Source: Pleomorphomonas diazotrophica | GTDB lineage: Bacteria; Pseudomonadota; Alphaproteobacteria; Rhizobiales; Pleomorphomonadaceae | DNA length: 64,000 bases | Direction of reading: 5' to 3' | Assembly: GCF_002844595.1 (NCBI RefSeq) | Contig: NZ_PJNW01000004.1 | Coordinates: forward strand, 62,001-126,000 | Shown here: positions 40,193 through 54,289 of the stretch, in pieces | Numbering within the stretch: the stretch's first letter is position 1 | Layout of the letters: every line of letters starts with the position of its first letter | The notes under the pieces: generated by a model | What the model saw: only the letters and a program-made list of their open reading frames with translations | The model's database searches: none | What the model was told of the DNA's origin: nothing | Position numbers and translations under genes: made by a program

Positions 40193-40371
40193 GCTCGTGA
40201 ACTCTCCCTTTCGCCACGCCCTTTGAAGGCGCGACCCCGCTTTCCATCCCTGGCGGCATACTTGTCGCTGCACCGCCATCGCCAATCGGCCATCTCCCGT
40301 CATGGCCGCTCATGATGGTCCCCGGCGAGGCCGGGCCAGCAGTTTTTGATTGCCGAAGCCATTCTAGCCGT

Positions 40372-40383
40372 CTACCATACTAC
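40372..40383. promoter_or_regulatory. Candidate GntR-type operator between uxaC and the TRAP genes
   Basis: CTACCATACTAC lies in the 246-base divergent region, 56 bases before the TRAP binding-protein start, and shares the ATACTAC and CTACCAT elements with 35867-35876. A single regulator could control both divergent operons from here. Confidence 0.4.
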
Positions 40384-40438
40384 TCGTCAACGAGGCGCGT
40401 GTGGAGGACTTGCCGCGCCGATCGTTTGGGAGGAACCC

Positions 40439-41425
40439 ATGGGATTCATGTCTCGGGCCGCCTTGGCGGCCGCTTGCGGGCTGGCTTTTGCTGGCTCAAT
40501 GCTCGGCGTTGCCACGGCCGCCGACTACACGCTCAACATCAACACGGCGCTCACCACGTCCGACCCGCTCTACAAGGGTCTCGAGGATTTGCAGAAGAAC
40601 GTGGAGGCGCGGTCTGAGGGGCGGCTGGCCATCCGTCTGTTCCCGGGTTCGCAGCTCGGCAAGGACGAGGACGTGCTGGAACAGGCGCGCGCCGGTGCCG
40701 GCAATGCCGTGGTGGTCGATGGCGGCCGCCTCGCCGTCTACGTCAAGGACTTCGGCGTTCTCTCCGGCCCCTATCTCGCTTCGGGCTATGAGGGCATCCG
40801 CAAGGTGGTGACCTCGCCGCTGCTCGACGAGATGGCCAAGAAGCTGCACGACGGCGCCCAGTTGCAGGTGCTGTCCTTCAACTGGTGGCAGGGCGAGCGG
40901 CATCTCCTCACCAACAAGCCGATCAAGGTGCCGGCCGATCTCCAGGGCATCCGCATGCGCACGCCCGGCGCGCCGGTGTGGACCGAGACCGTCAAGGCGA
41001 TGGGCGCGACCCCGGCGCCGATGGCCTGGGCCGAGGTCTATTCGGCCTTGCAGACGCAGGTGATCGACGCCGTCGAGGCGCAGGACCCGGCGGCCTACGG
41101 CTCGCGGCTTTATGAGGTCACCAAGTATCTGACCAAGACGGGCCACTTCAACCTGATCACCGGCCTCGTCACCTCGGCGGCCTGGTTCGACGCGCTGCCG
41201 CCCGATCTCCAGACCATCCTCAAGGAAGAGGCGCTGAAGTCCGGCGACGTGGCCTCGCACGGCACCGAGGCGGCGATCGCCGACATCGAAGCCAAGATGA
41301 AGGAAGCCGGCATGACCATCGACGAGATCGACGTGACGCCCTTCAAGGAAGCGACCGCCGGCGTCTACGAGACACTCGGCTATACCGACCTCAAGAAAGA
41401 GGTCGACGCCCTTCTCGCCAAGTAA
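40439..41425 (+). CDS. TRAP transporter solute-binding protein (DctP family)
   Basis: A 328-residue periplasmic protein with a signal peptide of about 27 residues (cleavage near ATAADYT). DctP-family features include KDEDVLEQARAGAG and the ligand-site segment IRMRTPGAPVWTETVKAMGATP. The ATG at 40439 follows GGGAGGA. It captures the substrate for the DctQM membrane proteins. Position opposite the glucuronate operon points to a hexuronate as substrate. Confidence 0.93.
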   Translation: MGFMSRAALAAACGLAFAGSMLGVATAADYTLNINTALTTSDPLYKGLEDLQKNVEARSEGRLAIRLFPGSQLGKDEDVLEQARAGAGNAVVVDGGRLAVYVKDFGVLSGPYLASGYEGIRKVVTSPLLDEMAKKLHDGAQLQVLSFNWWQGERHLLTNKPIKVPADLQGIRMRTPGAPVWTETVKAMGATPAPMAWAEVYSALQTQVIDAVEAQDPAAYGSRLYEVTKYLTKTGHFNLITGLVTSAAWFDALPPDLQTILKEEALKSGDVASHGTEAAIADIEAKMKEAGMTIDEIDVTPFKEATAGVYETLGYTDLKKEVDALLAK

Positions 41426-41452
41426 CGAAAACAAGTCACTGGAGCCTGCGTC

Positions 41453-41983
41453 ATGTCATCCCTGATCATGCGCGTGGAGTCCGTCGTGGCCCGAGCATTG
41501 CTCGCGGCCATGGTCGGCCTCGTCTTCATGGCCGGCGTCATGCGCTGGTTCGGATATCCGCTCGTATGGTCGATGGACGTGGCGCAGCTCCTGTTCGTCT
41601 GGGCATCGTTCATCGGCGCCGACATGGCGATGCGCAAGCGCGGCCTGATCGCCGTCGACCTGTTCGTGCGCTGGATCCCGCCCCGTTACCGGGTCTATCT
41701 CGACCTCGCCACCGGGCTCATGATCCTCGCCTTCCTGCTGACGCTCAGCTACCTCGGCTACAGGCTGGTCATGCTCAATCTCGAGCGGCAGTTCGGCGAC
41801 AGCGGCATCAGCTATGCCTATGTCACCGCGGCCGTGCCGATCGGCTGCCTGCTGCTCGCCATCACGCTGATCGGCCAGATCATCGAGGCCGTGAAGTCGG
41901 CGGGTGGCAACCCCGCCCTTATTTTCACACCAACCCGCAGCAAGGAAGAGGCGCTGGCCGCCGCCGGGGAGAGCGAACTATGA
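41453..41983 (+). CDS. TRAP transporter small membrane subunit (DctQ family)
   Basis: A 176-residue membrane protein with four predicted helices and the DctQ-typical VWASFIGADMAMRKRGLIAVDL. It overlaps the large subunit gene by 4 bases (ATGA, 41980-41983). It is required for assembly of the TRAP permease. Confidence 0.92.
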   Translation: MSSLIMRVESVVARALLAAMVGLVFMAGVMRWFGYPLVWSMDVAQLLFVWASFIGADMAMRKRGLIAVDLFVRWIPPRYRVYLDLATGLMILAFLLTLSYLGYRLVMLNLERQFGDSGISYAYVTAAVPIGCLLLAITLIGQIIEAVKSAGGNPALIFTPTRSKEEALAAAGESEL

Positions 41984-43269
41984 CCGGCGAAATGCTGCTT
42001 CTGATCGGCCTGTTCTTCGGCCTGTTGATCGTCGGGGCGCCGGTGGCCTTTGCCATCGGCATCTCCGGCTTTTCCTTCTTCATCATCTCCCAGGTAATGC
42101 CGGCGTCGATCGGCGTGCAGCAGGTGGCCTCGGCCTCGCAGAGCTTCCCGCTGCTCGCCGTGCCCTTCTTCGTGCTGGCCGGCCACATGATGAACAAGAC
42201 GGGTATCACCACCCGCCTCATTCGCTGTTCGGAGGTGCTGGTCTCCTGGATGTCGGGCGGCATGGCGCAGGTGTGCATCGTGCTGTCGACGCTGATGGGC
42301 GGCGTTTCCGGCTCGGCCGTCGCCGACGCTGCCATGGAGGCACGCATCCTCGGACCGGATCTGGTGCGCAACGGCTATTCCAAGGGCTTCACGGCCGCCA
42401 CCATCGCCGTGGGGTCGCTGATCACCGCCACCATTCCGCCGAGCCTCGGGCTGATCCTCTACGGCTTCGTCGGCAACGTCTCCATCGGCCGGCTGTTCCT
42501 GGCCGGCGTCATTCCCGGCCTGATGATGATGGCCGGGCTGATGTTCACGGTGTGGGTTGTCTCGCGCAAGCGCGGCTACCGCTCGGCCACCGTCACGCGG
42601 CCGAGCTGGTCGGCGGTCGGCAGTGCGGTGTGGGACGCCAAGTGGGCGCTGTTCTTCCCGGTGGCGCTGCTCGTCTCCATCCGCAGCGGCATGTTCACGC
42701 CGTCGGAAGTCGGTGCCTTCGCCGTCGTCTACGCCATTGTCGTCGGCGTGCTGTTCCATCGCGAGCTCACCTGGCAGGGCGCCATGGAGGCGCTGCTGCA
42801 CGGCGTGATCGACAATGGCCTGATCGTCCTGATCATCATGTTCTCGGGCATGGTGGGATACGCCATCATCTTCGACCAGGCGCCGCAGGCGATCGCCCAG
42901 GGCATGCTGGGCCTGACGCAGAGCCCGACCGCGATCCTGTTCCTGATCGTGGTGTTCCTCTTGATCGCTGGCTGCTTCATCGAGGCGACGGTGCTGGTGC
43001 TGCTCTTGACGCCGATCTTCCTGCCGATCGTGCTGCAGCTCGGCGTCGACCCGGTGCATTTCGGCATCGTCATGATGACCATGGTCACCTTCGGCGGCAT
43101 GACGCCGCCGGTGGGTGTCGCCATGTTCACGGTCTGCGGCCTCCTCGACTGCAGCATCGACGAGTATCTCGTCGAGGCGCTGCCGCATATCGCCACCATC
43201 CTGATCCTCGTCGCGATCCTGATCTTCTTCCCGCAGATATCCCTCTTCCTGCCCAATCTGCTCATGTAG
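41980..43269 (+). CDS. TRAP transporter large membrane subunit (DctM family)
   Basis: A 429-residue permease with about 12-13 helices that carries out sodium-coupled import. Characteristic stretches are PLLAVPFFVLAGHMMN, GGVSGSAVADAAM, TATIPPSLGLILYG and TFGGMTPPVGVAMF. It is the last gene of the TRAP operon, followed by a terminator. The start lies within the DctQ stop. Confidence 0.95.
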   Translation: MTGEMLLLIGLFFGLLIVGAPVAFAIGISGFSFFIISQVMPASIGVQQVASASQSFPLLAVPFFVLAGHMMNKTGITTRLIRCSEVLVSWMSGGMAQVCIVLSTLMGGVSGSAVADAAMEARILGPDLVRNGYSKGFTAATIAVGSLITATIPPSLGLILYGFVGNVSIGRLFLAGVIPGLMMMAGLMFTVWVVSRKRGYRSATVTRPSWSAVGSAVWDAKWALFFPVALLVSIRSGMFTPSEVGAFAVVYAIVVGVLFHRELTWQGAMEALLHGVIDNGLIVLIIMFSGMVGYAIIFDQAPQAIAQGMLGLTQSPTAILFLIVVFLLIAGCFIEATVLVLLLTPIFLPIVLQLGVDPVHFGIVMMTMVTFGGMTPPVGVAMFTVCGLLDCSIDEYLVEALPHIATILILVAILIFFPQISLFLPNLLM

Positions 43270-43488: not shown

Positions 43489-44076
43489 ATGAGTCACTTC
43501 GACCTCGCCATTCTGGTGATCGACGAGAATGCGGTCCGCGCGGCCATCATCGAGGATGGATTGCGCGAGGCGGGGCACAGTCACGTCACCGTCGTCCACA
43601 CGGTGAACGGCATCGCCCGCGTCATCGAGGCGACCCGGCCGGACGTGATCATCATCGACATCGAGAACCCCAACCGCGACATGATGGAGCACCTGTTCCA
43701 ACTGACGCGGTCGGTCAGCCGGCCCATCGCCATGTTTGTCGACCGCTCGGATTCGGCGTCGATCGAGGCGGCGGTGGAGGCGGGCGTGTCGGCCTATATC
43801 GTCGACGGCCTGAAGAAGGAGCGGGTGAAGCCGATCTTGGACATGGCGGTGATCCGCTTCAACGCTTTCAGCCGCCTGCAGAGGGAGCTGGAGGAAGCCA
43901 AGTCGGCGCTGGAAGATCGCAAGGTGATCGAGCGGGCCAAGGGCATCCTGATGAAGCTCCGCAACCTCAGCGAAGAGGAAGCCTACGCGCTGATGCGCCA
44001 GACGGCGATGAACGAGAAGAAGAAGATGGCCGACATCGCCCAGTCCGTGGTGACGGCGGCCGGCCTCTTGATGTGA
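43489..44076 (+). CDS. nasT: NasT-type ANTAR antiterminator
   Basis: A 195-residue response-regulator-like protein. The receiver (residues about 5-122) keeps Asp57 in IIIDIENP but the surrounding motifs are atypical. A coiled-coil linker follows at about 122-145, and then the C-terminal ANTAR RNA-binding domain with DRKVIERAKGILMKLRNLSEEEAYALMRQTAM. Known NasT binds paired hexaloop hairpins in nitrate-gene leaders and prevents termination when NasS releases it. NasS is encoded 13 bases downstream, and a fitting leader RNA is at 45455-45586. Confidence 0.93.
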   Translation: MSHFDLAILVIDENAVRAAIIEDGLREAGHSHVTVVHTVNGIARVIEATRPDVIIIDIENPNRDMMEHLFQLTRSVSRPIAMFVDRSDSASIEAAVEAGVSAYIVDGLKKERVKPILDMAVIRFNAFSRLQRELEEAKSALEDRKVIERAKGILMKLRNLSEEEAYALMRQTAMNEKKKMADIAQSVVTAAGLLM

Positions 44077-44089
44077 TGGAGCCACGGCG

Positions 44090-45319
44090 ATGACCACGAT
44101 CGACCATCCCGATATCGCCGCCCCGGCCGTCACCTCCGGGCCCGAGCAGACGCATCTCCGCGCCGGCTTCATTCCGCTGGTCGATGCTTCCGTGCTGATC
44201 GCCGCCGCCGAGCTGGGCTTTGCCGCCCGCGAGGGGCTGACGCTCGATCTGGTGCGCGACGTGTCCTGGGCCAATATCCGCGACCGACTGGCCTTCCGGC
44301 AGTTCGACCTGGCGCACATGCTGTCGCCGATGCCGATCGCCGCCATGCTGGAGCTGGGCTCCAACCCGTCGCCGACCATCGCGCCCTTCGTGCTGGGGCG
44401 GGGCGGCAACGCCATCACCCTGTCGGTGCGCCTGTTCGAGGCGATGCAGGCGATGACCGGCCTTGCCGACGACGCCTCGGCGCTCGATTGCGCCAAGGCA
44501 TTGGCCACCGTCATTGCAGGACGCAAGCAGAGCGGAATGCCGCCGCTGACGCTCGGCATGACCTATCCCTATTCCTCCCATAACTACGAACTCCGCTACT
44601 GGCTGGCCGCCGGCGGCGTCGATCCGGACCGGGATGTCCGGCTGCGCGTGGTGCCGCCGCCGATGACCTCGGACGCGCTGGCGGCCGGCGCCATCGACGG
44701 CTTCTGTGTCGGCGCGCCCTGGAACATGGTCGCCTCGGAAAAGGGCGTCGGCCGCATCGTCGCCACCAAGCAGGACATCTGGGCGTCGTCGCCGGAAAAG
44801 GTCATCGGCCTGCGTCCGGATTGGGCCGAGCGCAATCGCGACAGCGTCTCGCGGCTGATCGTGGCGCTGAATGCCTCGGCACGCTGGTGCGACGATCCGG
44901 CCAACCACGAGGCGCTGGCCGATCTCCTGGCGCAGGAGGCCAATCTCGGCGCGCCGGTCGAGATCATCCGCCACGTGCTGGCCGGCCAGTTCGCGCTCGA
45001 CGCCAAGGGCAACCGGCGCGTGGTGCCGAACTATTTCGTGTTCCACGGGGCGGAGGCCAACTGCCCGTCGTCCACCCAGGCGCTCTGGGTCTACAGCCAG
45101 ATGGTCCGCTGGGGGCAGGTCGCCTATTCGCCGGAAGCTGCCGCGACGGCCGCCTCCGCCTTCCGCGCCGACCTCTACGCCTCGGCGCTGGGCCTCAGGG
45201 AAAGCCCCTGCGAGGAAGCCGTCGCCGATCCGTTCATCGACGGTCGCAGCTTCGATCCGGCAGAGCTCGAAGCCTATGTCAGGAGCTTCGGTTCGCCCAA
45301 TCAGGGTGCAACTGCCTAG
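44090..45319 (+). CDS. nasS: NasS-type cytoplasmic nitrate/nitrite sensor
   Basis: A 409-residue relative of the nitrate-binding protein NrtA that lacks any signal peptide: the protein starts MTTIDHPDIAAPAV and goes straight into the binding fold (LRAGFIPLVDASVLIAA). It shares YWLAAGGVDPDRDV and GAPWNMVASEKG-type segments with the NrtA gene downstream. NasS holds NasT inactive until nitrate or nitrite binds. The location beside nasT fixes the role. Confidence 0.9.
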   Translation: MTTIDHPDIAAPAVTSGPEQTHLRAGFIPLVDASVLIAAAELGFAAREGLTLDLVRDVSWANIRDRLAFRQFDLAHMLSPMPIAAMLELGSNPSPTIAPFVLGRGGNAITLSVRLFEAMQAMTGLADDASALDCAKALATVIAGRKQSGMPPLTLGMTYPYSSHNYELRYWLAAGGVDPDRDVRLRVVPPPMTSDALAAGAIDGFCVGAPWNMVASEKGVGRIVATKQDIWASSPEKVIGLRPDWAERNRDSVSRLIVALNASARWCDDPANHEALADLLAQEANLGAPVEIIRHVLAGQFALDAKGNRRVVPNYFVFHGAEANCPSSTQALWVYSQMVRWGQVAYSPEAAATAASAFRADLYASALGLRESPCEEAVADPFIDGRSFDPAELEAYVRSFGSPNQGATA

Positions 45320-45429
45320 GCCTACGCCGCCCATTTAAGCAGAAAGTCGTATGGCGCGGAAATGGGCGAGGGCGCCTGCAACCGCCAAAACGCCTTTGAA
45401 AACAAGAACCATTCCAGACTGATCGAAAG

Positions 45430-45445
45430 TGGCACGGCCATTGCT
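45430..45445 (+). promoter_or_regulatory. Sigma-54 promoter of the nitrate operon
   Basis: TGGCACG-N4-TTGCT matches the -24/-12 consensus of RpoN promoters without mismatch (GG at 45431-45432, GC at 45443-45444). Transcription would start near 45455, exactly at the first leader hairpin. This ties the operon to general nitrogen control (NtrC). I did not find a clear NtrC box in the 110 bases upstream. Confidence 0.85.
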
Positions 45446-45454
45446 TTTATAGAA

Positions 45455-45586
45455 CTGCCTCGGTCAACGGCGACCTGAAGGCAGGTGGGCGCTCTGTAGC
45501 GCACAACATCCATCCGACATCGACGTCGCAAGCTCTTGCTGGCGGGATTCTCCCATCCCCATCGGCTCAGCTTCGCGGCGTTTTTT
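45455..45586 (+). ncRNA. ANTAR-target leader RNA with antiterminator hairpins and terminator
   Basis: Hairpin P1 has outer stem CTGCCT/AGGCAG (45455-45460, 45479-45484) and inner stem GGTC/GACC closing the hexaloop AACGGC (45466-45471). Hairpin P2 has CGAC/GTCG (45515-45518, 45525-45528) closing the hexaloop ATCGAC. Both loops carry A at position 1 and G at position 4, as in known ANTAR targets. The terminator pairs CGTCGCAAGCT (45524-45534) with AGCTTCGCGGCG (45569-45580, one bulge) and ends in TTTTTT (45581-45586). P2 and the terminator share 45524-45528 and exclude each other. An alternative middle hairpin, GCGC/GCGC with loop TCTGTA, lies at 45489-45502. Confidence 0.75.
45524..45586 (+). 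terminator. Regulated terminator in the nitrate operon leader
   Basis: An 11-bp stem with one bulged C and one G-U pair, a loop containing a small GGGA/TCCC hairpin (45544-45554), and a six-T run at 45581-45586. It lies 33 bases before the nrtA start and would stop transcription unless NasT stabilises the competing hairpin at 45515-45528. Confidence 0.75.
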
Positions 45587-45619
45587 GTTGTTCAGGCTCC
45601 GCCAACTCGAGGGCAATCC

Positions 45620-46903
45620 ATGACCGATATCTCCCGGCGCTCCATCCTGAAGACCTCCGCCACGGTGGCCCTGCTCGGCGCCGTCCGCACCGCCTTTCCG
45701 TCGGGCGCCTTCGCCGCCACGGCCGGTCCGGAAGTGACCGGCGTCAAGCTCGGCTATATCGCGCTGACCGACGCGGCGCCGCTGGTGATCGCCAAGGAAA
45801 AGGGCCTGTTCGCCAAATACGGTCTGCCGGACGTCGAGGTGGCCAAGCAGGCCTCCTGGGGCGCCACGCGAGACAATCTGGTGCTCGGCGGCGCGGCCAA
45901 CGGCATCGACGGCGCGCATATCCTGACGCCCATGCCCTACCTGATCTCCACCGGCAAGGTGACGCAGAACAACGTGCCGGTGCCGATGTCCATTCTCGCC
46001 CGACTCAACCTCGACAGCCAGGGCATCTCGGTGGCCAAGGAATACGCCGGCGCCGGCGTCGGCCTCGACGCGAGCAAGCTCAAGGAGGCCTTCGCCGCCA
46101 AGAAAGCCGGCGGCGGTGAGGTGAAGGTGGCGATGACCTTCCCCGGCGGCACCCATGACCTCTGGATCCGCTACTGGCTGGCGGCCGGCGGCATCGATCC
46201 GGACAAGGACGTCTCCACCATCGTGGTGCCGCCGCCGCAGATGGTCGCCAACATGAAGGTCGGCAACATGGACGCCTTCTGCGTCGGCGAGCCGTGGAAC
46301 GAGCAACTGGTCAACCAGGGCATCGGCTTCACCGCCTGCACCACCGGCGAACTGTGGAAGGGCCACCCGGAGAAGGCGCTGGCGCTGCGATCCGACTGGA
46401 TCGAGGCCAACCCGAACGCCACCAAGGCGCTGTTGATGGCGGTGATGGAGGCCCAGCAGTGGGCCGACAGCATGGACAACAAGGAGGAAATGGCGGCCAT
46501 CCTCGGCAAGCGGCAATGGTTCAACGTGCCGCCCAAGGACGTGCTCGGCCGCCTCAAGGGCACCATCAACTACGGCAACGGCCGCCTTCTCGAGAACACC
46601 GGCCTCGAGATGAAGTTCTGGAAGGAGCACGCCTCCTATCCCTTCAAGAGCCACGACGCCTGGTTCCTCACCGAGAACGTTCGCTGGGGCAAGTTGCCGG
46701 GCGACACCGACATCAAGGCGCTGGTCGACAAGGTGAACCGCGAGGACCTCTGGCGCGCCGCCGCCGCGGACCTCGGCGTTGCCGCCGCCGACATTCCCGC
46801 CAGTTCCTCGCGCGGTCCGGAGACCTTCTTCGACGGCAAGGTTTTCGATCCCGAAAATCCCAAGGCCTACCTCGACAGCCTGACCATCAAGGCCATGGCC
46901 TGA
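45620..46903 (+). CDS. nrtA: Nitrate ABC transporter substrate-binding protein
   Basis: A 427-residue periplasmic binding protein of the NrtA/CmpA family. The N-terminus carries a twin-arginine signal, SRRSILKTSATVALLGAV, so it is probably exported folded by Tat. The body has GYIALTDAAPLVIAKEKGLF, HDLWIRYWLAAGGIDPD and the nitrate-site region FCVGEPWNEQLV. The ATG at 45620 follows GAGGG. It is the first gene after the regulated leader and is paralogous to the cytoplasmic NasS. Confidence 0.93.
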   Translation: MTDISRRSILKTSATVALLGAVRTAFPSGAFAATAGPEVTGVKLGYIALTDAAPLVIAKEKGLFAKYGLPDVEVAKQASWGATRDNLVLGGAANGIDGAHILTPMPYLISTGKVTQNNVPVPMSILARLNLDSQGISVAKEYAGAGVGLDASKLKEAFAAKKAGGGEVKVAMTFPGGTHDLWIRYWLAAGGIDPDKDVSTIVVPPPQMVANMKVGNMDAFCVGEPWNEQLVNQGIGFTACTTGELWKGHPEKALALRSDWIEANPNATKALLMAVMEAQQWADSMDNKEEMAAILGKRQWFNVPPKDVLGRLKGTINYGNGRLLENTGLEMKFWKEHASYPFKSHDAWFLTENVRWGKLPGDTDIKALVDKVNREDLWRAAAADLGVAAADIPASSSRGPETFFDGKVFDPENPKAYLDSLTIKAMA

Positions 46904-46910
46904 GAAATCC

Positions 46911-47018
46911 CGCTCCGGCGGCCGTCTGGCGCGACTTTCTGCGCTTCCGTTGCTCACGGACATCAAAGTCCGCTCCGCTCCGGTTCTCGAAAGCCACGCC
47001 ATCCGACTCGCCGGAGCG
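46911..47018. other. Long inverted repeat in the nrtA-nrtB gap
   Basis: CGCTCCGGCG (46911-46920) and CGCCGGAGCG (47009-47018) are perfect 10-base arms 88 bases apart in the 151-base gap. A smaller GGAC/GTCC stem lies inside. In the message this could fold into a large stem-loop that stabilises the nrtA end or lowers nrtB expression. There is no T-run, so it is not a standard terminator. Confidence 0.4.
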
Positions 47019-47054
47019 AATTTCCACTTCACTAGATTCCTCGGAGACAGCCTA

Positions 47055-47942
47055 ATGACTGCCACCGCCAGAAAAGTCCCGATCGAAGCGGCCAGCCGGC
47101 CGGCCCAACCCGGCAAGGTCGTGCCGCTCGGTCGCGCCCAGGCGAACCGGATCGACTTCGGCCGCGCCGCCGCGAATCTCGCGCGCAACGTCATCCCACC
47201 GCTCGTCGTGCTTCTGGTGCTGCTCGCCGTCTGGCAGGTGAGCTGCTCGGGCGTCGGCGCGCCGCTGCCGCCGCCCTCCCAGATCTGGACCGACAGCTAC
47301 GATCTCATCGCCTATCCCTTCTTCGACTACGGCTCGCAGGACATCGGCCTCGCCTGGCGGGTGCTGACCTCGCTGCAGCGCGTCGCCATCGGCTTCGGCC
47401 TTGCCGCCGTGGTCGGCGTGGCGCTCGGCGCGCTGGTCGGCCAGTCGGTGTGGGCGATGCGCGGCCTCGACCCGATCTTCCAGATCCTCAGGACGGTGCC
47501 GCCGCTCGCCTGGCTGCCGCTGTCGCTCGCCGCCTTCCAGGACAGCAACCCCTCGGCCATTTTCGTGATCTTCATCACCTCGATCTGGCCGGTCATCATC
47601 AACACCGCCGTCGGCGTGCGCAACATTCCCGAGGACTATCGCAACGTCGCCCGCGTGCTCCGGCTGAACCAGTTGGAGTTCTTCCTGCGCATCATGCTGC
47701 CGGCGGCGGCGCCCTACATCTTCACCGGCCTGCGCATCGGCATCGGCCTCTCCTGGCTCGCCATCGTCGCGGCGGAAATGCTGACCGGCGGCGTCGGCAT
47801 CGGCTTCTTCATCTGGGACGCGTGGAACTCATCGCGCCTTCCCGACATCATCGTGGCGCTCGCCTACATCGGCCTCACCGGCTTCGTCCTCGACAAGCTG
47901 GTGGCCTTCCTGGGGCGCGTCATCGCCCGCACCAGCGCCTGA
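47055..47942 (+). CDS. nrtB: Nitrate ABC transporter permease
   Basis: A 295-residue inner-membrane permease of the NrtB/SsuC/TauC family. It has a long cytoplasmic N-terminus, then about six helices. The stretch RTVPPLAWLPLSLAAFQDSNPSAIF is family-specific, and the EAA-like loop is IPEDYRNVARVLRLNQLEFFLRI. The ATG at 47055 follows GGAG. The ATPase gene follows after 10 bases. Confidence 0.93.
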   Translation: MTATARKVPIEAASRPAQPGKVVPLGRAQANRIDFGRAAANLARNVIPPLVVLLVLLAVWQVSCSGVGAPLPPPSQIWTDSYDLIAYPFFDYGSQDIGLAWRVLTSLQRVAIGFGLAAVVGVALGALVGQSVWAMRGLDPIFQILRTVPPLAWLPLSLAAFQDSNPSAIFVIFITSIWPVIINTAVGVRNIPEDYRNVARVLRLNQLEFFLRIMLPAAAPYIFTGLRIGIGLSWLAIVAAEMLTGGVGIGFFIWDAWNSSRLPDIIVALAYIGLTGFVLDKLVAFLGRVIARTSA

Positions 47943-47952
47943 GGGGGAAACG

Positions 47953-48750
47953 ATGAGCGCCTATCTGAAAATCGATCATATCGACAAGAGCTTCGCCCGC
48001 GGCGGCGCCGCCACCCATGTGCTCGCCGACGTGACGCTGACCATCGACAAGGGCGAGTTCGTGTCGATCATCGGCCATTCCGGCTGCGGCAAGTCGACGC
48101 TGCTCAACCTCGTCGCCGGCCTGACGCGCGTCTCCGCCGGAGCGATCCTGCTCGAGGGCAGGGAAGTGAACGAGCCCGGCCCCGAGCGGGCTGTGGTGTT
48201 CCAGAACCACTCGCTGCTGCCGTGGCTCAGCGTCTATGAGAACGTCAACCTCGCGGTGTCCAAGGTGTTCGCCGGCAAGAAGAGCCGGGCCGAGCGCCAC
48301 GACTGGGTGATGCACAACCTCGATCTGGTGCAGATGGCCCACGCCAAGGACAAGCGGCCGGCCGAGATCTCCGGCGGCATGAAGCAGCGCGTCGGCATCG
48401 CCCGCGCGCTCGCCATGGAGCCGAAGATCCTGCTGCTCGACGAGCCGTTCGGCGCGCTCGACGCCCTGACCCGCGCCCACCTGCAGGACGCTGTGATGGA
48501 TATCCATGCCCGCCTCGGCAACACCATGATCATGATCACCCATGACGTCGACGAGGCGGTGCTGCTCTCCGACGGCATCGTGATGATGACCAACGGCCCG
48601 GCGGCCCATATCGGCGAGGTGCTGGAGGTGCCGATCCCCCGGCCGCGCGACCGCATCGCCCTTGCCTCCGACCGGTCCTACCTCAAGTGCCGCGAGGCCG
48701 TGCTGAAGTTCCTCTACGAGCGCCACCGCTTCGTCGAAGCCGCGGAGTAA
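47953..48750 (+). CDS. nrtC: Nitrate ABC transporter ATP-binding protein (NrtD-like)
   Basis: A 265-residue ATPase. Walker A is GHSGCGKST, the Q-loop is VVFQNHSLLPWLSVYENV, the signature is ISGGMKQR, Walker B is ILLLDEPFGALD, and the switch is ITHDVDEA. It lacks the C-terminal NrtA-like domain of cyanobacterial NrtC, so it resembles NrtD; the symbol follows usage in proteobacterial nrtABC operons. Six bases separate it from nirB. Confidence 0.92.
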   Translation: MSAYLKIDHIDKSFARGGAATHVLADVTLTIDKGEFVSIIGHSGCGKSTLLNLVAGLTRVSAGAILLEGREVNEPGPERAVVFQNHSLLPWLSVYENVNLAVSKVFAGKKSRAERHDWVMHNLDLVQMAHAKDKRPAEISGGMKQRVGIARALAMEPKILLLDEPFGALDALTRAHLQDAVMDIHARLGNTMIMITHDVDEAVLLSDGIVMMTNGPAAHIGEVLEVPIPRPRDRIALASDRSYLKCREAVLKFLYERHRFVEAAE

Positions 48751-48756
48751 GCCATC

Positions 48757-51204
48757 ATGAGCGAGAAACTCGTCATCATCGGCAACGGCATGGCCCCCGG
48801 CCGCATGCTGGAAGAACTGTTCGAGAAGGCGCCCGGCGCCTATGACGTCACCATCTTCAACGCCGAACCGCGCGTGAACTACGACCGCATCATGCTGTCG
48901 CCGGTGCTGTCGGGCGAGAAGAGCTATGAGGACATCGTCATCCATGACGACGCCTGGTATGCGAAGAACGGCGTGACGCTGCTGAAGGGCGCCCGCGTCA
49001 CCGAGATCGACCGCGAGCGTCGCATCGTCACTGCCGCCGACGGCCGCACCGCCAGCTACGACAAGCTGGTGATCGCCACGGGGTCGACGCCGATCATCAT
49101 CCCGGTGCCCGGCCATCAGTTGCCCGGCGTGCTCGCCTATCGCGACCTCGACGACGTCGACCGCATGCTGGAGATCGCCAGGGGCGGCGGCCGCGCCATC
49201 GTCATCGGCGGCGGCCTTCTCGGCCTCGAAGCGGCCTATGGCCTGAAGCGCCAGGGCATGGAGGTGACGGTCATCCACCTGATGCCGACCATCATGGAGC
49301 GGCAGCTCGACCCGCCCGCCGCCTACATGCTGAAGAAGGCGCTGGGCGATCGCGGCATCGACATCATCACCAAGGCCAACACCAAGGCGATCCTCGGCAC
49401 CGACAAGGTGGAAGGCATCGAGCTCGACGACGGCCGCATCATCCCCGGCGACATGGTGGTGATGGCCGTCGGCATCCGGCCGAACACCACGCTGGCCCAC
49501 GCGGCGGGATTGGAGGTCAATCGCGGCATCGTCGTCAACGACGGCATGCAGACCTCTGACCCCCAGATCTACGCCCTCGGCGAATGCGCCGAGCATCGCG
49601 GCGTCTGCTACGGCCTCGTCGCGCCGCTCTATGAAAGCGCCCGGGCGCTGGCCGATCGCCTCGCCGGCGGCAGTGCCGAATATCTGGGCTCGGTGACCAA
49701 CACCAAGCTGAAGGTCACCGGCATCAACCTGTTCTCGGCCGGCGACTTCGCCGAGGCGCCGGACCGCGAGGAGATCGTGCTGCGCGATGCCTCGGCCGGC
49801 GTCTACAAGCGCCTGGTCTTGAAGGACAATCGCATCGTCGGCACGGTGCTCTATGGCGACACGGCCGACGGTTCGTGGTTCTTCGACCTGATGAAGAAGG
49901 GCAGCGACGTTTCGGCCATGCGCGACACGCTGATCTTCGGCCAGTCGTTCCAGGGAGGGGCGCCCCTGGACCCTATGGCGGCCGTTGCAGCCTTGCCCGA
50001 TGACGCGGAAATCTGCGGCTGCAACGGCGTCTGCAAGGGCAAGATCACCTCGACCATTTCGGGCAAGGGCCTGACCACGCTCGACGAAGTAAGGGCGCAT
50101 ACCAAGGCCTCGGCCTCCTGCGGCAACTGCACCGGCCTCGTCGAGCAGTTGATGAAGCTGACGCTGGGCGACCGCTACAATCCGGCGGCCGTCACGCCGA
50201 TGTGCGGCTGCACCGACCTCGGCCACGACGACGTCCGCCGCCTCATCCTCGCCAAGGGCCTCAAGACCATTCCGGCCGTCATGCAGGAGCTGGAGTGGAA
50301 GACCTCCTGCGGCTGCGCCAAGTGCCGGCCGGCGCTCAACTACTACCTCGTCTGCGACTGGCCGGACGAATATGCCGACGACTACCAGTCGCGCTTCATC
50401 AACGAGCGCGTCCACGCCAACATCCAGAAGGACGGCACCTATTCTGTGGTGCCGCGCATGTGGGGCGGCGTCACCTCGGCGGCCGAGCTCCGGGCGATCG
50501 CCGACGTGGTCGACAAGTTCCAGGTGCCGATGGTCAAGGTCACCGGCGGCCAGCGCATCGACCTCCTGGGCATCCAGAAGGAGGATCTGCCGGCGGTCTG
50601 GGCCGATCTCGGCAAGGCGGGCTTCGTCTCCGGTCAGGCCTATGCCAAGGGCCTGCGCACGGTGAAGACCTGCGTCGGCTCGGAATGGTGCCGCTTCGGC
50701 ACGCAGGACTCCACCGGTCTCGGCATACGCCTCGAAAAGTTCATGTGGGGCTCGTGGACGCCGGCCAAGCTGAAGCTCGCCGTCTCCGGCTGCCCGCGCA
50801 ACTGCGCCGAGGCCACCTGCAAGGACATCGGCGTCATCTGCGTCGATAGCGGCTTCGAGATCCACTTCGCCGGCGCGGCGGGGCTGGAGATCAAGGGCAC
50901 GGAAGTGCTCGGCATGGTGAAGACCGAGGACGAGGCGCTCGAACACATCGTGGCGCTGACGCAGATGTACCGCGAGCAAGGCCGCTATCTCGAGCGCATC
51001 TACAAGTGGGCCAAGCGCGTCGGCCTCGACGAGATCCGCCGCCAGATCATGGACGATGCGGAGAAGCGCAAGGGCTATTTCGACCGCTTCGTGTTCAGCC
51101 AGAAATTCGCCCAGGTCGATCCCTGGTCCGAGCGCGTCTCGGGCAAGGACAAGCATGAGTTCAAGCCGCTGGTGGTCACCGGCTTCAGCGAAGCGGCCGA
51201 GTAA
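48757..51204 (+). CDS. nirB: Assimilatory nitrite reductase large subunit
   Basis: An 815-residue cytoplasmic siroheme enzyme that reduces nitrite to ammonium with NAD(P)H. The N-terminal half is an FAD/NAD(P)-binding reductase (IGNGMAPGR, VIGGGLLGLEAAYGL). The middle has the BFD-like [2Fe-2S] domain with CGCNGVCKG and CGNCTG and a second CGCAKCRP cluster motif. The C-terminal sulfite/nitrite reductase half carries the siroheme/[4Fe-4S] cysteines in TCVGSEWCRFG and SGCPRNCAEATC. The length is normal. Confidence 0.96.
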   Translation: MSEKLVIIGNGMAPGRMLEELFEKAPGAYDVTIFNAEPRVNYDRIMLSPVLSGEKSYEDIVIHDDAWYAKNGVTLLKGARVTEIDRERRIVTAADGRTASYDKLVIATGSTPIIIPVPGHQLPGVLAYRDLDDVDRMLEIARGGGRAIVIGGGLLGLEAAYGLKRQGMEVTVIHLMPTIMERQLDPPAAYMLKKALGDRGIDIITKANTKAILGTDKVEGIELDDGRIIPGDMVVMAVGIRPNTTLAHAAGLEVNRGIVVNDGMQTSDPQIYALGECAEHRGVCYGLVAPLYESARALADRLAGGSAEYLGSVTNTKLKVTGINLFSAGDFAEAPDREEIVLRDASAGVYKRLVLKDNRIVGTVLYGDTADGSWFFDLMKKGSDVSAMRDTLIFGQSFQGGAPLDPMAAVAALPDDAEICGCNGVCKGKITSTISGKGLTTLDEVRAHTKASASCGNCTGLVEQLMKLTLGDRYNPAAVTPMCGCTDLGHDDVRRLILAKGLKTIPAVMQELEWKTSCGCAKCRPALNYYLVCDWPDEYADDYQSRFINERVHANIQKDGTYSVVPRMWGGVTSAAELRAIADVVDKFQVPMVKVTGGQRIDLLGIQKEDLPAVWADLGKAGFVSGQAYAKGLRTVKTCVGSEWCRFGTQDSTGLGIRLEKFMWGSWTPAKLKLAVSGCPRNCAEATCKDIGVICVDSGFEIHFAGAAGLEIKGTEVLGMVKTEDEALEHIVALTQMYREQGRYLERIYKWAKRVGLDEIRRQIMDDAEKRKGYFDRFVFSQKFAQVDPWSERVSGKDKHEFKPLVVTGFSEAAE

Positions 51205-51212
51205 AGTTCACG

Positions 51213-51256
51213 GCATCCGCCCGAAAAGTTGCAGACTTTTCGGACCAAGCGGATGC
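51213..51256. repeat. Palindromic intergenic repeat between nirB and nirD
   Basis: A 44-base element made of an outer stem GCATCCGC/GCGGATGC (51213-51220, 51249-51256) and an inner stem CCGAAAAGT/ACTTTTCGG (51221-51229, 51235-51243). In form and wording it resembles the dispersed CCGAAAAGT-type palindromes that I recall from Rhizobiales genomes, and the following bases up to about 51275 (CCAAAACAAGATCAGGAGCA) look like part of the same unit. It supplies the AGGAG used by nirD. Confidence 0.65.
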
Positions 51257-51281
51257 GCCAAAACAAGATCAGGAGCATAAG

Positions 51282-51611
51282 ATGACCTGGGTCACCATCG
51301 GCCGTCTTGAGGATATTCCGGTTCGCGGGGCGCGTTGCGTCAATACGCCGGAGGGGCGGATCGCCGTGTTCCGCACCGCCGACAATGAGGTGTTCGCCAT
51401 GGAGGACAGCTGCCCGCACAAGCGCGGGCCGCTCAGCCAGGGCATCGTCCACGGCAAGAGCGTGACCTGCCCGCTGCACAACTGGGTGATCTCCCTGGAG
51501 TCTGGGGCAGCGCAAGGCGCCGACAGCGGTCAGGTTCGCACCATTTCCGTGCGCAATGATAACGGAACGCTTCTGCTCGAGCTGACCGAGCTGCGTGTCG
51601 CTGCCGAGTAA
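51282..51611 (+). CDS. nirD: Nitrite reductase small subunit (Rieske type)
   Basis: A 109-residue Rieske-like protein. The [2Fe-2S] ligands are Cys44 and His46 (SCPHKRGPLSQG) and Cys63 and His66 (TCPLHNW), so the cluster-binding set is complete. It pairs with NirB. The start follows AGGAG, which comes from the end of the repeat element upstream. Confidence 0.94.
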   Translation: MTWVTIGRLEDIPVRGARCVNTPEGRIAVFRTADNEVFAMEDSCPHKRGPLSQGIVHGKSVTCPLHNWVISLESGAAQGADSGQVRTISVRNDNGTLLLELTELRVAAE

Positions 51612-51634
51612 ACCATCGGAGAGACTGCCCGAGA

Positions 51635-54289
51635 ATGGTTCAGGAAACCCGTACCACCTGTCCCTACTGCGGTGTCGGCTGCGGTGTGCTCGTCCGCGTC
51701 GACGACGATGGGCGGACGACCGTCAAGGGCGATCCCGATCATCCCGCCAACTTCGGTCGGCTCTGTTCCAAGGGCTCGGCGCTGGTTGAGACGCTGGGGG
51801 ATGATGGCCGCATTCATCATCCTGAGATCGGCGGGCGGCAGGCGGGTTGGGACGAGGCGCTGGATATCGTGGCCGGCACCTTCAAGGAGACCATCGCCGA
51901 GCATGGGCCGGAGGCCGTCGCCTTCTATCTGTCGGGCCAGCTTCTCACCGAGGATTATTACGTCGCCAACAAGCTGATGAAGGGCTTCATCGGCGCCGCC
52001 AACATCGACACCAACTCACGCCTCTGCATGGCCTCGTCGGTGGCGGGCCATCGCCGCGCCTTCGGTTCCGACACGGTGCCGGGCAATTATGAGGACATCG
52101 AGCTTGCCGATCTCGTGGTGATCGTCGGCTCCAACATGGCCTGGTGCCACCCGGTGCTCTACCAGCGCCTCGCGGCGGCCAAGGCAGCGCGTCCCGAAAT
52201 GTCGGTGGTGGTGATCGACCCGCGCCGCACCGCGACGAGCGACATCGCCGACTTGCATCTCTCCATCCGCGCCGACGGCGACGTGGCGCTGTTCAACGGG
52301 CTGATGGCGCATCTGCACGCTGCCGGTCATGTCGATCGACCCTTCATCACCGAGCATACCGAGGGCTTCACGGCGGCCCTCGGCGAGGCACGGCGCCTGG
52401 GGCCGCATGAGCTTTCCGCCGTCACCGGCCTGACGCAGGCGGAGATCGCCGCCTTCTACGAGCGCTTTGCCGCGACCGAGAAGGTGGTGACGCTGTTCAG
52501 CCAGGGCGTCAACCAGTCGTCGTCGGGCAGCGACAAGGTCAACGCCATCATCAACTGCCACCTCATCACCGGCCGCATCGGCCGGCCGGGAATGGGGCCG
52601 CTGTCGCTGACCGGCCAGCCCAACGCCATGGGCGGGCGCGAGGTGGGCGGGCTCGCCAACATGCTGGCCGCCCATATGAATCTGGACGATGCCGCCGATC
52701 GCGACCGCGTCGGCCGCTTCTGGGCCGCACCTGATATCGCCGAGCGGCCGGGCCTCAAGGCGGTGGATCTGTTCGACGCCGTGGCCGACGGCCGCGTCAA
52801 GGCGCTGTGGATCATGGCGACCAACCCGGTGGTATCGATGCCCGAGGCCGACCGGGTGCGGGCGGCCATCGCCGCCTGTCCCTTCGTCGTCGTCTCGGAC
52901 ATCCAGCGCGATACCGACACGGCGCGGCTCGCCCATGTGCTCCTGCCCTCGCTCGGCTGGAGCGAGAAATCCGGCACCGTCACCAACTCCGAGCGGCGCA
53001 TCTCCCGCCAGCGCGCCTTCCGCATGGGGCCGGGCGAGGCACGGGCCGACTGGTGGCAGTTCGCCGAGGTCGGTCGCCGCATGGGCTTTGGCGATGCCTT
53101 CGCCTATGCCGGGCCGCACCAGATCTTCGCCGAGCATGCCGGCCTCTCGGGCTTCGAGAACGCCGGCCGCCGCGACTTCGACATTTCCGCCCATGCCGGC
53201 ATCGACGCCGCCGGTTACGAGCGGCTCCAGCCCTTCCAGTGGCCGCAGCCGGCCGGCACACCGCCGGAGACCAGCCGTTTCTTCGCCGATGGCCGCTTCT
53301 ACCACACCGACGGCAGGGCGCGCTTCGTGGCCGCGAAGGGCGAGACCGAACGCCGCACCAACTGGGGCTTCCCCTTCGTGCTGAACACCGGCCGCGTCCG
53401 CGACCACTGGCACACCATGACGCGCACCGGCAAATCGCCGCGCCTGTCGGCCCATCTCGCCGAACCCTTCGCCGAGATCCATCCGGCCGACGCCCGAGCC
53501 TGTGGCATTGACGACGCCGACCTCGTGGAGGTGGAGAATGAGTTGGGCGCCCGCGTCATCGTGCGGGCGCTGCTCACCGACCGGCAGGCGCGCTGCAACC
53601 TGTTCGTCCCCATGCACTGGACGGGCGAGACCTCGGCGCTCGCCCGGGTCAACGCGTTGTTCCCCGGCCGGGTCGATGCGGTCTCTGGCCAGCCGGCGTT
53701 GAAGCATACGGCGGTCCGCCTGCGTCGGCATGACAGCGAGACGCACGGCTTTCTTGTGTCCGAGAAAAAGCCCGAGGGCGTTGGCACCGACTATTGGGCG
53801 CTGGCCCGCACCGATCACGGCTGGCGGCTGGAGCTCGCCGGCTCTCCACCGGCCGAAGGCTGGGAAGGCTGGCTGCGCCGGGTGGCCGGCCTGCCGGCGG
53901 AGGCGGACGTCATCGGCTATCATGAGCGAGCGGGGACTCGCATGGCCGCCTTCACGGGTACGCGCCTTCACGCCGCGCTCTATGTCGGCAAGGGGCCGGT
54001 CGCCGTATCGCGCGCCTGGGCGGCCGATCAGCTCGGCCAGAGCTTCACCGATCCGCACCGCCGGGCGGACGTGGTGGCCGGGCGGCCGGGCAAGGGCGGC
54101 ACTGATAAGGGCGCCATCGTCTGCGCCTGCGCCGCCGTGGGCATCAACGACATCCGCGCCGCCATCGCCTCGGGCTGCCAGAGCGTCGACGCCGTGGGCG
54201 AGGCGACGGCCGCCGGCACCAACTGCGGCTCCTGCCGCCCGGAGATCCGCCGCATCCTCGAGGGCATGATGCTTCAGGCGGCCGAGTGA
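51635..54289 (+). CDS. nasA: Assimilatory nitrate reductase catalytic subunit
   Basis: An 884-residue molybdopterin-guanine-dinucleotide enzyme that reduces nitrate to nitrite. The [4Fe-4S] ligands are Cys9, Cys12, Cys16 and Cys44 (TCPYCGVGCG ... LCSKGSA). The molybdopterin oxidoreductase core spans about residues 60-690, with GQPNAMGGREVGG typical of NasA. A C-terminal BFD-like [2Fe-2S] domain has CACAAVGIN and NCGSCRPE, as in Klebsiella NasA. No separate electron-transfer subunit gene is in the cluster, so electrons may come from a ferredoxin or from NirB-like reductase activity. Confidence 0.95.
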   Translation: MVQETRTTCPYCGVGCGVLVRVDDDGRTTVKGDPDHPANFGRLCSKGSALVETLGDDGRIHHPEIGGRQAGWDEALDIVAGTFKETIAEHGPEAVAFYLSGQLLTEDYYVANKLMKGFIGAANIDTNSRLCMASSVAGHRRAFGSDTVPGNYEDIELADLVVIVGSNMAWCHPVLYQRLAAAKAARPEMSVVVIDPRRTATSDIADLHLSIRADGDVALFNGLMAHLHAAGHVDRPFITEHTEGFTAALGEARRLGPHELSAVTGLTQAEIAAFYERFAATEKVVTLFSQGVNQSSSGSDKVNAIINCHLITGRIGRPGMGPLSLTGQPNAMGGREVGGLANMLAAHMNLDDAADRDRVGRFWAAPDIAERPGLKAVDLFDAVADGRVKALWIMATNPVVSMPEADRVRAAIAACPFVVVSDIQRDTDTARLAHVLLPSLGWSEKSGTVTNSERRISRQRAFRMGPGEARADWWQFAEVGRRMGFGDAFAYAGPHQIFAEHAGLSGFENAGRRDFDISAHAGIDAAGYERLQPFQWPQPAGTPPETSRFFADGRFYHTDGRARFVAAKGETERRTNWGFPFVLNTGRVRDHWHTMTRTGKSPRLSAHLAEPFAEIHPADARACGIDDADLVEVENELGARVIVRALLTDRQARCNLFVPMHWTGETSALARVNALFPGRVDAVSGQPALKHTAVRLRRHDSETHGFLVSEKKPEGVGTDYWALARTDHGWRLELAGSPPAEGWEGWLRRVAGLPAEADVIGYHERAGTRMAAFTGTRLHAALYVGKGPVAVSRAWAADQLGQSFTDPHRRADVVAGRPGKGGTDKGAIVCACAAVGINDIRAAIASGCQSVDAVGEATAAGTNCGSCRPEIRRILEGMMLQAAE

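What the first reader, a model, noticed from the sequence alone, without database searches (positions are those of the whole stretch)
45430..45619. Complete sigma-54 plus ANTAR antitermination leader ahead of nrtABC-nirBD-nasA
The sequence shows an exact -24/-12 promoter whose predicted start falls at the first base of a hexaloop hairpin. A second hexaloop hairpin shares bases 45524-45528 with the 5' arm of a six-T terminator. Both loops have A1 and G4, the known ANTAR signature, and nasT-nasS lie directly upstream. Two unusual points: the two hexaloop hairpins are about 30 bases apart with an extra GCGC hairpin between them, whereas described ANTAR targets are closely spaced; and P1 begins at the transcription start with almost no leader.
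Basis: partly seen in the sequence, partly recalled or inferred. Interest (0 to 1): 0.75.

Follow-up and report, generated by a model that had tools for sequence, protein, structure and literature searches.

The report
Nitrate-sensing RNA switch with spacer hairpin
The start of this bacterium's nitrate-uptake messenger RNA carries a switch, probably read by the nitrate-released protein NasT, in which the two short hairpins the protein should recognise seem to be held at the right distance by a third hairpin that keeps its shape but not its sequence in many rhizobia.

Summary
The window (genus Pleomorphomonas, by its closest named record) has an exact sigma-54 site, a hexaloop hairpin P1 starting at the predicted +1, a middle hairpin H2, and a hexaloop hairpin P2 whose 3' arm is also the 5' arm of a six-T terminator, between nasT-nasS and nrtABC-nirBD-nasA. 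A covariance model built without this genus ranks the leader first in its 4.5 Mb genome (45.9 bits, E 1.8e-8). The wide spacing is not a local oddity: 64 of 153 examined nasTS loci share it (61 distinct), and all 61 linkers (24-32 nt) can fold H2, leaving a median of 8 unpaired nt. H2 changes sequence but keeps pairing, so I read it as a spacer that restores the short P1-P2 distance known for EutV. With loops chosen by stem alone, A1 and G4 are invariant (P2 61 of 61, P1 56 of 56). Other leaders of the order have a tight pair (0-7 nt); two genomes whose only ANTAR match is NasT carry both classes. Rfam's 'narK RNA' looks like the same kind of leader without H2. New variant of a known kind; NasT binding and readthrough here are inferred, not tested.

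The parts
43489..44076 (+). nasT, receiver + ANTAR domain antiterminator
   Evidence: Pfam PF03861 and PF00072
44090..45319 (+). nasS, presumed nitrate/nitrite-binding partner of NasT
   Evidence: Pfam NMT1_2; position next to nasT; role from PMC3795266
45294..45310 (+). weak NtrC-like palindrome (8 of 10 consensus letters), candidate enhancer only
   Evidence: motif scan: 9 or more letters in 17 of 61 leaders against 3.2 in mononucleotide shuffles; the window's own best site scores only 8
45430..45445 (+). sigma-54 -24/-12 promoter, TGGCACggccaTTGCT
   Evidence: sequence; conserved in the same-genus alignment and seen in the class A set
45456..45483 (+). P1 hexaloop hairpin (loop AACGGC 45466-45471), begins at predicted +1
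   Evidence: fold; A1/G4 56 of 56 with unselected loops
45484..45514 (+). linker holding spacer hairpin H2 (core 45489-45502; in the fold of 45456-45529 closed by GGUGG 45484-45488 with CCAUC 45510-45514)
   Evidence: fold; H2 in 61 of 61 distinct linkers; covariation
45515..45528 (+). P2 hexaloop hairpin (loop ATCGAC 45519-45524)
   Evidence: fold; A1/G4 61 of 61 with unselected loops
45523..45586 (+). intrinsic terminator with six T, 5' arm shared with P2
   Evidence: fold; 3' arm complementary to P2 3' arm in 64 of 64 class A leaders
45620..54289 (+). presumed controlled genes: nrtA (45620-46903), nrtB (ORF 46950-47942), nrtC (47953-48750), nirB (48757-51204), nirD-like (51282-51611), nasA (51635-54289)
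   Evidence: ORFs and Pfam; nirD-like frame read by translation

Best explanation
A sigma-54 (presumably NtrC-driven) promoter starts the nrtABC-nirBD-nasA mRNA at about 45456. Without nitrate, NasS holds NasT and the RNA forms the terminator at 45523-45586. With nitrate, free NasT binds the A1/G4 hexaloops of P1 and P2; stabilised P2 keeps bases 45524-45528 out of the terminator and RNA polymerase reads through. H2 is a spacer: by folding away about 20 nt it brings P1 and P2 to the short distance that ANTAR proteins need. Shown here: the anatomy, conservation of both hexaloops and of the P2/terminator overlap, and pairing-conserving change in H2. Inferred: NasT binding, the nitrate signal, antitermination itself, NtrC as activator, and H2's role.
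For: Hold-out model R2 finds the window leader as best hit in its genome. A1/G4 invariant with unselected loops. P2/terminator overlap 64 of 64. H2 in 61 of 61 linkers when P1's closing pair is imposed; 50 of 61 linkers fold at least as well as all but 5 of 100 of their own shuffles; unpaired linker median 8 nt. H2 core 95.7% paired with changes on both sides in 4 of 4 pairs on the model-fitted alignment; 80.3% and 3 of 5 on the plain MAFFT alignment. Class A leaders of three other genera of the window's family, not next to nasT, keep H2 with other sequences. Literature: NasT binds nasA leader RNA and NasS-NasT dissociates with nitrate in Paracoccus (PMC3795266, passages); EutV needs close hairpins: eut linkers 5-12 nt, 3 or 14 nt strongly impair (PMC3369931, section), +20 nt abolishes (PMC8934654, passages).
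Against: No expression, binding or start-site data. P2 of the window is weak, and three of its pairs never vary in the set, so pair counts say nothing for P2. The window's own H2 is among the less convincing: linker z -1.31 against a median of -2.51, other pairs when folded alone, and its row is badly placed over H2 in A6. The hold-out score (45.9 bits) is not far above the best false positive seen (41.2 bits, reading as a coding frame, among 289 genomes). H2's outermost pair is only 50% paired, and the model-fitted alignment leans to the structure. Sequences are mostly Rhizobiaceae, so the 61 leaders are far from independent. One relative, L109, has no intact P2 by eye. Linkers up to 25 nt are accepted for actinobacterial ANTAR RNAs (PMC8164766, passage), so EutV's constraint may not bind NasT.
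Confidence: 0.75

Rival explanations
1. P1, H2 and P2 form a NasT switch, but H2 is not a spacer: it is a pause hairpin, 5'-end stabiliser or site for another regulator that gives NasT time or adds a second signal.
For: H2 is conserved as a helix; its loop varies from 3 to 8 nt, and a polymerase pause needs a helix more than a sequence.
Against: H2 sequence and loop can change wholly, which disfavours a sequence-specific second regulator; the residual linker (median 8 nt) falls in the known 5-12 nt range.
Confidence: 0.2
2. A plain terminator at the 3' end of nasTS or a constitutive attenuator; the hexaloops are chance.
For: A good intrinsic terminator lies between two gene sets; single A1/G4 hexaloops of 4 bp are frequent by chance.
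Against: Such a terminator would not need invariant hexaloops or overlap with P2, nor a sigma-54 site just upstream; class A leaders also stand before nrtABC copies away from nasTS.
Confidence: 0.04
3. One hairpin is enough in this family: P2 alone is the working site and P1+H2 protect or tune the transcript.
For: The EutV structure redefines the minimal binding site as one hexaloop (PMC8934654, passages). Only P2 overlaps the terminator.
Against: P1 loop letters A1, A2 and G4 are invariant. In class C leaders P1 keeps A1/G4 beside a decayed P2, though these may be young. Both hexaloops were needed for eutP induction by EutV.
Confidence: 0.12

Closest known systems
ANTAR dual-hexaloop antiterminators (EutV/eut, NasR/nasF, AmiR/amiE)
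   Same: Two hairpins with six-base loops, A1 and G4 conserved, P2 overlapping an intrinsic terminator, nitrogen genes (PMC3369931, sections read).
   Different: E. faecalis eut linkers are 5-12 nt; here 24-32 nt with a conserved helix inside. NasR and AmiR linker lengths were not seen.
Rfam RF03032 narK RNA
   Same: The window gives a sub-threshold match over the whole model (21.4 bits, cut-off 43.2). Of 15 RF03032 places, 14 were displayed with a sigma-54-like site, and 12 have a P1 and 12 a P2 hexaloop at a 4-bp stem.
   Different: Loop-to-loop gap 14-24 nt in the 9 of 15 places where both hairpins were found, against 39-48 nt in class A; no H2.
Paracoccus denitrificans nasA leader and Bradyrhizobium diazoefficiens nosR/nirA leaders, targets of NasT
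   Same: NasS-NasT control with leader hairpins and termination (PMC3795266, PMC5424462, PMC6759348; passages).
   Different: Hexaloop spacing was not given in the passages I saw; their sequences were not compared here.
Class B leaders found here (Mesorhizobium and other members of the order)
   Same: Two A1/G4 hexaloops, P2 overlapping a terminator, downstream of nasTS, usually after a sigma-54-like site.
   Different: The paired hexaloops are the second and third hairpins with a 0-7 nt linker in 46 of 53 entries; the other seven are explained in the full report.

Membership tests
ANTAR dual-hexaloop antiterminator | Two hairpins with six-base loops, A at 1 and G at 4 | tested here: met
   loops unselected for sequence A1/G4 61 of 61 (P2) and 56 of 56 (P1)
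ANTAR dual-hexaloop antiterminator | P2 mutually exclusive with an intrinsic terminator | tested here: met
   Folds of the growing transcript, and complementarity in 64 of 64 class A leaders
ANTAR dual-hexaloop antiterminator | Short linker (5-12 nt in E. faecalis eut; 2-25 nt accepted in actinobacteria) | tested here: inconclusive
   Raw linker 24-32 nt, outside the eut range; within it if H2 folds (median 8 unpaired nt, range 3-15)
ANTAR dual-hexaloop antiterminator | An ANTAR protein encoded by the genome | tested here: met
   NasT next door; two ANTAR matches in G000
ANTAR dual-hexaloop antiterminator | Protein binding and antitermination | not testable with these tools
   No binding or expression data
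Rfam RF03032 narK RNA | Score at or above the gathering cut-off (43.2 bits) | tested here: not met
   21.4 bits; no family over cut-off
sigma-54 promoter | GG at -24 and GC at -12 with standard spacing | tested here: met
   TGGCACggccaTTGC; consensus recalled
sigma-54 promoter | Enhancer-binding activator site upstream | tested here: inconclusive
   NtrC-like motif enriched in the set, weak in the window

The most novel reading that the evidence does not exclude
ANTAR leaders can be built from three hairpins of which two carry the hexaloops; the third is a sequence-free spacer, and one NasT reads both a tight (0-7 nt) and a hairpin-bridged (about 30 nt) pair in the same cell. Distance in space, not along the chain, is what the protein measures.
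Probability: 0.5. Interest if true: 0.65.

Novelty: new variant of a known kind. Interest (0 to 1): 0.5.

Why it matters
How an ANTAR dimer uses two hexaloops is not settled: the EutV crystal structure suggests that the dimer cannot hold both hexaloops of one RNA at once, yet linker length matters (PMC8934654, passages). Class A leaders are a natural experiment on that: the linker is some 20 nt longer and a hairpin is kept there. Genomes with a single ANTAR match and both leader classes (G290, G386) make it directly testable. The result also suggests a function for Rfam's narK RNA and gives covariance models for NasT leaders in Rhizobium, Agrobacterium, Sinorhizobium and relatives.

Tried and rejected
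Rfam at gathering threshold found nothing in the window. The second R2 hit in the own genome (G000:C36:396052-396126, E 0.002) and weak hits in G049, G014 and G018 were fetched; my scan saw no sigma-54 site followed by a T-run in those four stretches, so I do not count them. A weak hit in G160 and a second one each in G011, G396, G571, G576 and G018 were not looked at. R2 hits in G662, G822 and G671 read as coding sequence and were rejected. Class A as a strict marker of ABC nitrate transporters was dropped: of 79 loci (of 153) with an nrtA over 60% identical downstream of nasS, 59 are class A by script, 2 more by model (L087, L172), 8 fit class B (L122, L123, L124, L127, L158, L193, L198, L204) and 10 stay unclassified. 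'H2 is a decayed middle hexaloop' is possible (some leaders have three hexaloops) but was not tested by reconstruction. My first class A set was chosen with A1/G4 in the pattern, so its invariance was circular; one search repeats the count without that. Before the P2-based count (64 of 153) a cruder rule gave 59. Literature: the listings (listed rows only) showed no paper whose title or abstract start is about a hairpin-bridged ANTAR pair or about RF03032 as an ANTAR target; the library holds open-licence papers only, and the paper that I recall as describing narK RNA (doi 10.1093/nar/gkx699) is not held, so absence from print is weakly supported.

Full report
The sequence. Between nasS (ends 45319) and nrtA (starts 45620) lie, on the + strand, an exact sigma-54 site (45430-45445), hairpin P1 with loop AACGGC, hairpin H2, hairpin P2 with loop ATCGAC, and a terminator with six T. 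Counting from the -12 C, transcription should start at 45456, the first base of P1. Folding the growing transcript gives P1, H2 and P2 while the RNA ends at 45529 (-26.6 kcal/mol), and P1, H2 and the terminator when it reaches 45586 (-52.6), with P2 gone. A fold that includes the start of nrtA lacks P1 in the minimum-energy structure. The genes around it are nasT (ANTAR), nasS, nrtABC, nirB, a NirD-like frame and nasA.

The set. One hundred and fifty-two nasT loci (20, 80, 52) plus the window were oriented and scanned. The handles are told as same genus, family or order; the named records are rhizobia and kin by name, one being labelled Arenimonas. A few are the same record twice (L033 and L051; L035 and L063). 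One search kept only the 80 best of more than 585 relatives, so the set leans to Rhizobiaceae. Sixty-four of 153 have the wide architecture, 61 of them distinct ('class A'): the window, four other genomes of its genus, and records named Rhizobium, Agrobacterium, Sinorhizobium, Ensifer, Neorhizobium, Ciceribacter, Xaviernesmea and Phyllobacterium. The model adds L087 and L172. Loop-to-loop distance is 39-48 nt, P1's A1 lies at +10 to +12 in 64 of 64, and five bases of the P2 3' arm region are complementary (G-U allowed) to the terminator's 3' arm in 64 of 64.

Loop test without circularity. Choosing P2 only by GAC-N6-GTC and terminator complementarity gave 61 leaders: A1 61 of 61, G4 61 of 61, positions 2 and 3 variable (A5 is invariant too). 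Choosing P1 only as the strongest six-base-loop hairpin of at least 4 bp at that distance gave 56: A1 and G4 56 of 56; five leaders (L093, L113, L114, L115, L121) had no such stem and were dropped. These leaders are related, so this is conservation, not 61 independent tests.

Hold-out model. R2 was built from 39 class A leaders without the window's genus. In G000 the window leader is first at 45.9 bits, E 1.8e-8. In 34 chosen genomes, many of them in the training set, 32 have a match at E up to 0.01 and 28 at E up to 1e-6; the four weak ones (G014, G018, G049, G160) I do not count. In 397 genomes of the order 18 match at E up to 1e-6, one of them (G041) only by a P1+H2 stub. In 289 genomes of the class 4 match at E up to 1e-4: the window's own and three that read as coding sequence, the best at 41.2 bits. 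The margin over false positives is modest on score alone; position, promoter and terminator carry the rest.

H2. With P1's closing pair imposed, all 61 distinct linkers form a second hairpin of at least 3 pairs. Raw linker length is 24-32 nt (median 29), H2 about 20 nt, unpaired remainder 3-15 nt (median 8). The linker's own energy has a median z of -2.51 against 100 dinucleotide shuffles each, and in 50 of 61 at most 5 shuffles fold as well; the window itself is weaker (z -1.31). On the plain MAFFT alignment H2's inner helix is 80.3% paired with changes on both sides in 3 of 5 pairs. On the model-fitted alignment A6 (66 matches, 65 distinct) the core is 95.7% paired with such changes in 4 of 4, and whole-structure covariation is 0.327 against 0.159 shuffled, 0 of 500 as high; that alignment leans to the structure, the outermost pair is only 50% paired, and the window's row is badly placed there. 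Three of the four P2 pairs and the two closing P1 pairs never vary, so counts say nothing about them. Nine further class A leaders (L264, L266, L270, L274-L279; L279 is the leader of L172 seen again) fold P1 and a middle hairpin, in L274, L275, L276 and L279 with H2 sequences unlike the usual GAGCGC type; in L275 the unforced fold extends P1 into its loop. Seven of the nine lie on another contig than nasT or, in G017, about 130 kb away; those of G132 and G306 lie beside nasT. Structure kept, sequence free: the mark of a spacer or other passive helix.

The tight class. One search lists 38 distinct leaders of a second type, of which I aligned 32 (left out: L064, L125, L165, L186, L191, L198): a strong hairpin such as GGCGTCC-AATGGC-GGGCGCC, a short linker, then GGC-AAAGC(C/T)-GCC or kin overlapping the terminator. 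Names among them are Mesorhizobium, Chelatococcus and Rhizobium. Of 53 entries, 46 have a 0-7 nt linker; L036, L157 and L160 show the first and second of three hexaloops (gap 9), and L057, L071, L097 and L100 are class A leaders caught by the pattern. Pair counts support its helices (7 pairs with changes on both sides against 3.9 shuffled, 1 of 500 as high; the number of further pair types is not above shuffles). Loops here were selected for A1/G4, so invariance in this class is not independent; in a few (L170, L177, L179, L191) the best sigma-54-like site of my scan does not lie upstream. R3, the model of this class, matches 48 of 397 genomes of the order at E up to 1e-4 and none of the five genomes of the window's genus tried.

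Two classes, one protein. G290 and G386 each have one match to the ANTAR family in the genome, the NasT, and both a full class A leader on another contig and a class B leader beside nasT. In G290 the class A leader stands before nrtABC; in G386 I did not look. If both leaders work, NasT must read both. In Rhizobium johnstonii 3841 and R. anhuiense the class A leader at the nasTS locus survives as P1+H2, followed by a class B leader, a gene read by eye as an MFS (NarK-like) transporter, nirB and nasA; a full class A leader is elsewhere in both genomes, in R. johnstonii before nrtABC. R. mongolense has two nasT genes, each with its own class of leader. In G017 the class A leader stands before an ABC set only 33-52% identical to nrtABC.

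Relation to the known. RF03032 'narK RNA' matches the window below cut-off. Searching 200 genomes of the phylum gave 15 places in 9 genomes, 11 places over cut-off. Of these 15, 14 were displayed with a sigma-54-like site. P1 as an A1/G4 hexaloop with at least 4 bp was found in 12 and P2 in 12 (one with G1), both in 9, with loop-to-loop gaps 14-24 nt; three and three miss that stem length. So RF03032 looks like a sigma-54 plus ANTAR leader, and class A like that plan with H2 between the loops. EutV work found eut linkers of 5-12 nt, strong loss with 3 or 14 nt (PMC3369931, section 7) and loss of antitermination with +20 nt (PMC8934654, passages). Linkers of 2-25 nt were accepted for actinobacteria (PMC8164766, passage). 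NasT binding to a leader and nitrate-driven NasS-NasT dissociation were shown in Paracoccus (PMC3795266, passages).

Origin. In a NasT tree of 145 proteins those of the window's genus sit inside Rhizobiaceae while six NasT proteins of other genera of its family lie in a distant part (bootstrap not settled). The nas cluster and its leader were probably acquired together.

Verdict. The leader is real and most likely works as a NasT antiterminator. Its distinctive part is a conserved spacer hairpin. I place it as a new variant of a known kind.

Noticed in passing
L205-L219; Rfam RF03032: Rfam 'narK RNA' places show a sigma-54-like site (14 of 15 displayed) and two ANTAR-type hexaloops (both found in 9 of 15) before a T-run; it looks like an ANTAR leader under another name.
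   Followed up: partly
L265, L268; also L035, L056, L059, L061, L064, L065, L068, L070, L073, L078, L080: Rhizobium leguminosarum-type genomes keep a class A P1+H2 stub upstream of a complete class B leader; in the two looked at, an MFS transporter gene follows. Perhaps left by loss or move of nrtABC.
   Followed up: partly
window 43489-54289: NasT of the window's genus groups inside Rhizobiaceae, and nasT is present in 5 of 14 genomes of the genus: likely horizontal transfer of the cluster together with its leader.
   Followed up: partly
L036, L157, L160, L167, L186, L192, L203: Leaders with three A1/G4 hexaloop hairpins in a row, possibly an ancestral plan.
   Followed up: no
260 nt upstream of the sigma-54 site in class A leaders: NtrC-like palindromes enriched over mononucleotide shuffles: 17 of 61 with 9 or more of 10 letters against 3.2 expected; in 6 of 9 printed examples the best site lies 135-148 nt upstream.
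   Followed up: partly
window 38774-43269: Beyond nasT a minus-strand gene (uronate-isomerase-like by eye) and a plus-strand set that reads like a TRAP transporter; names recalled, not searched.
   Followed up: no
L263 (G571): Rhizobium mongolense carries two nasT-nasS pairs in tandem, one before a class A nrtABC unit and one before a class B unit leading to nirB-nasA.
   Followed up: no
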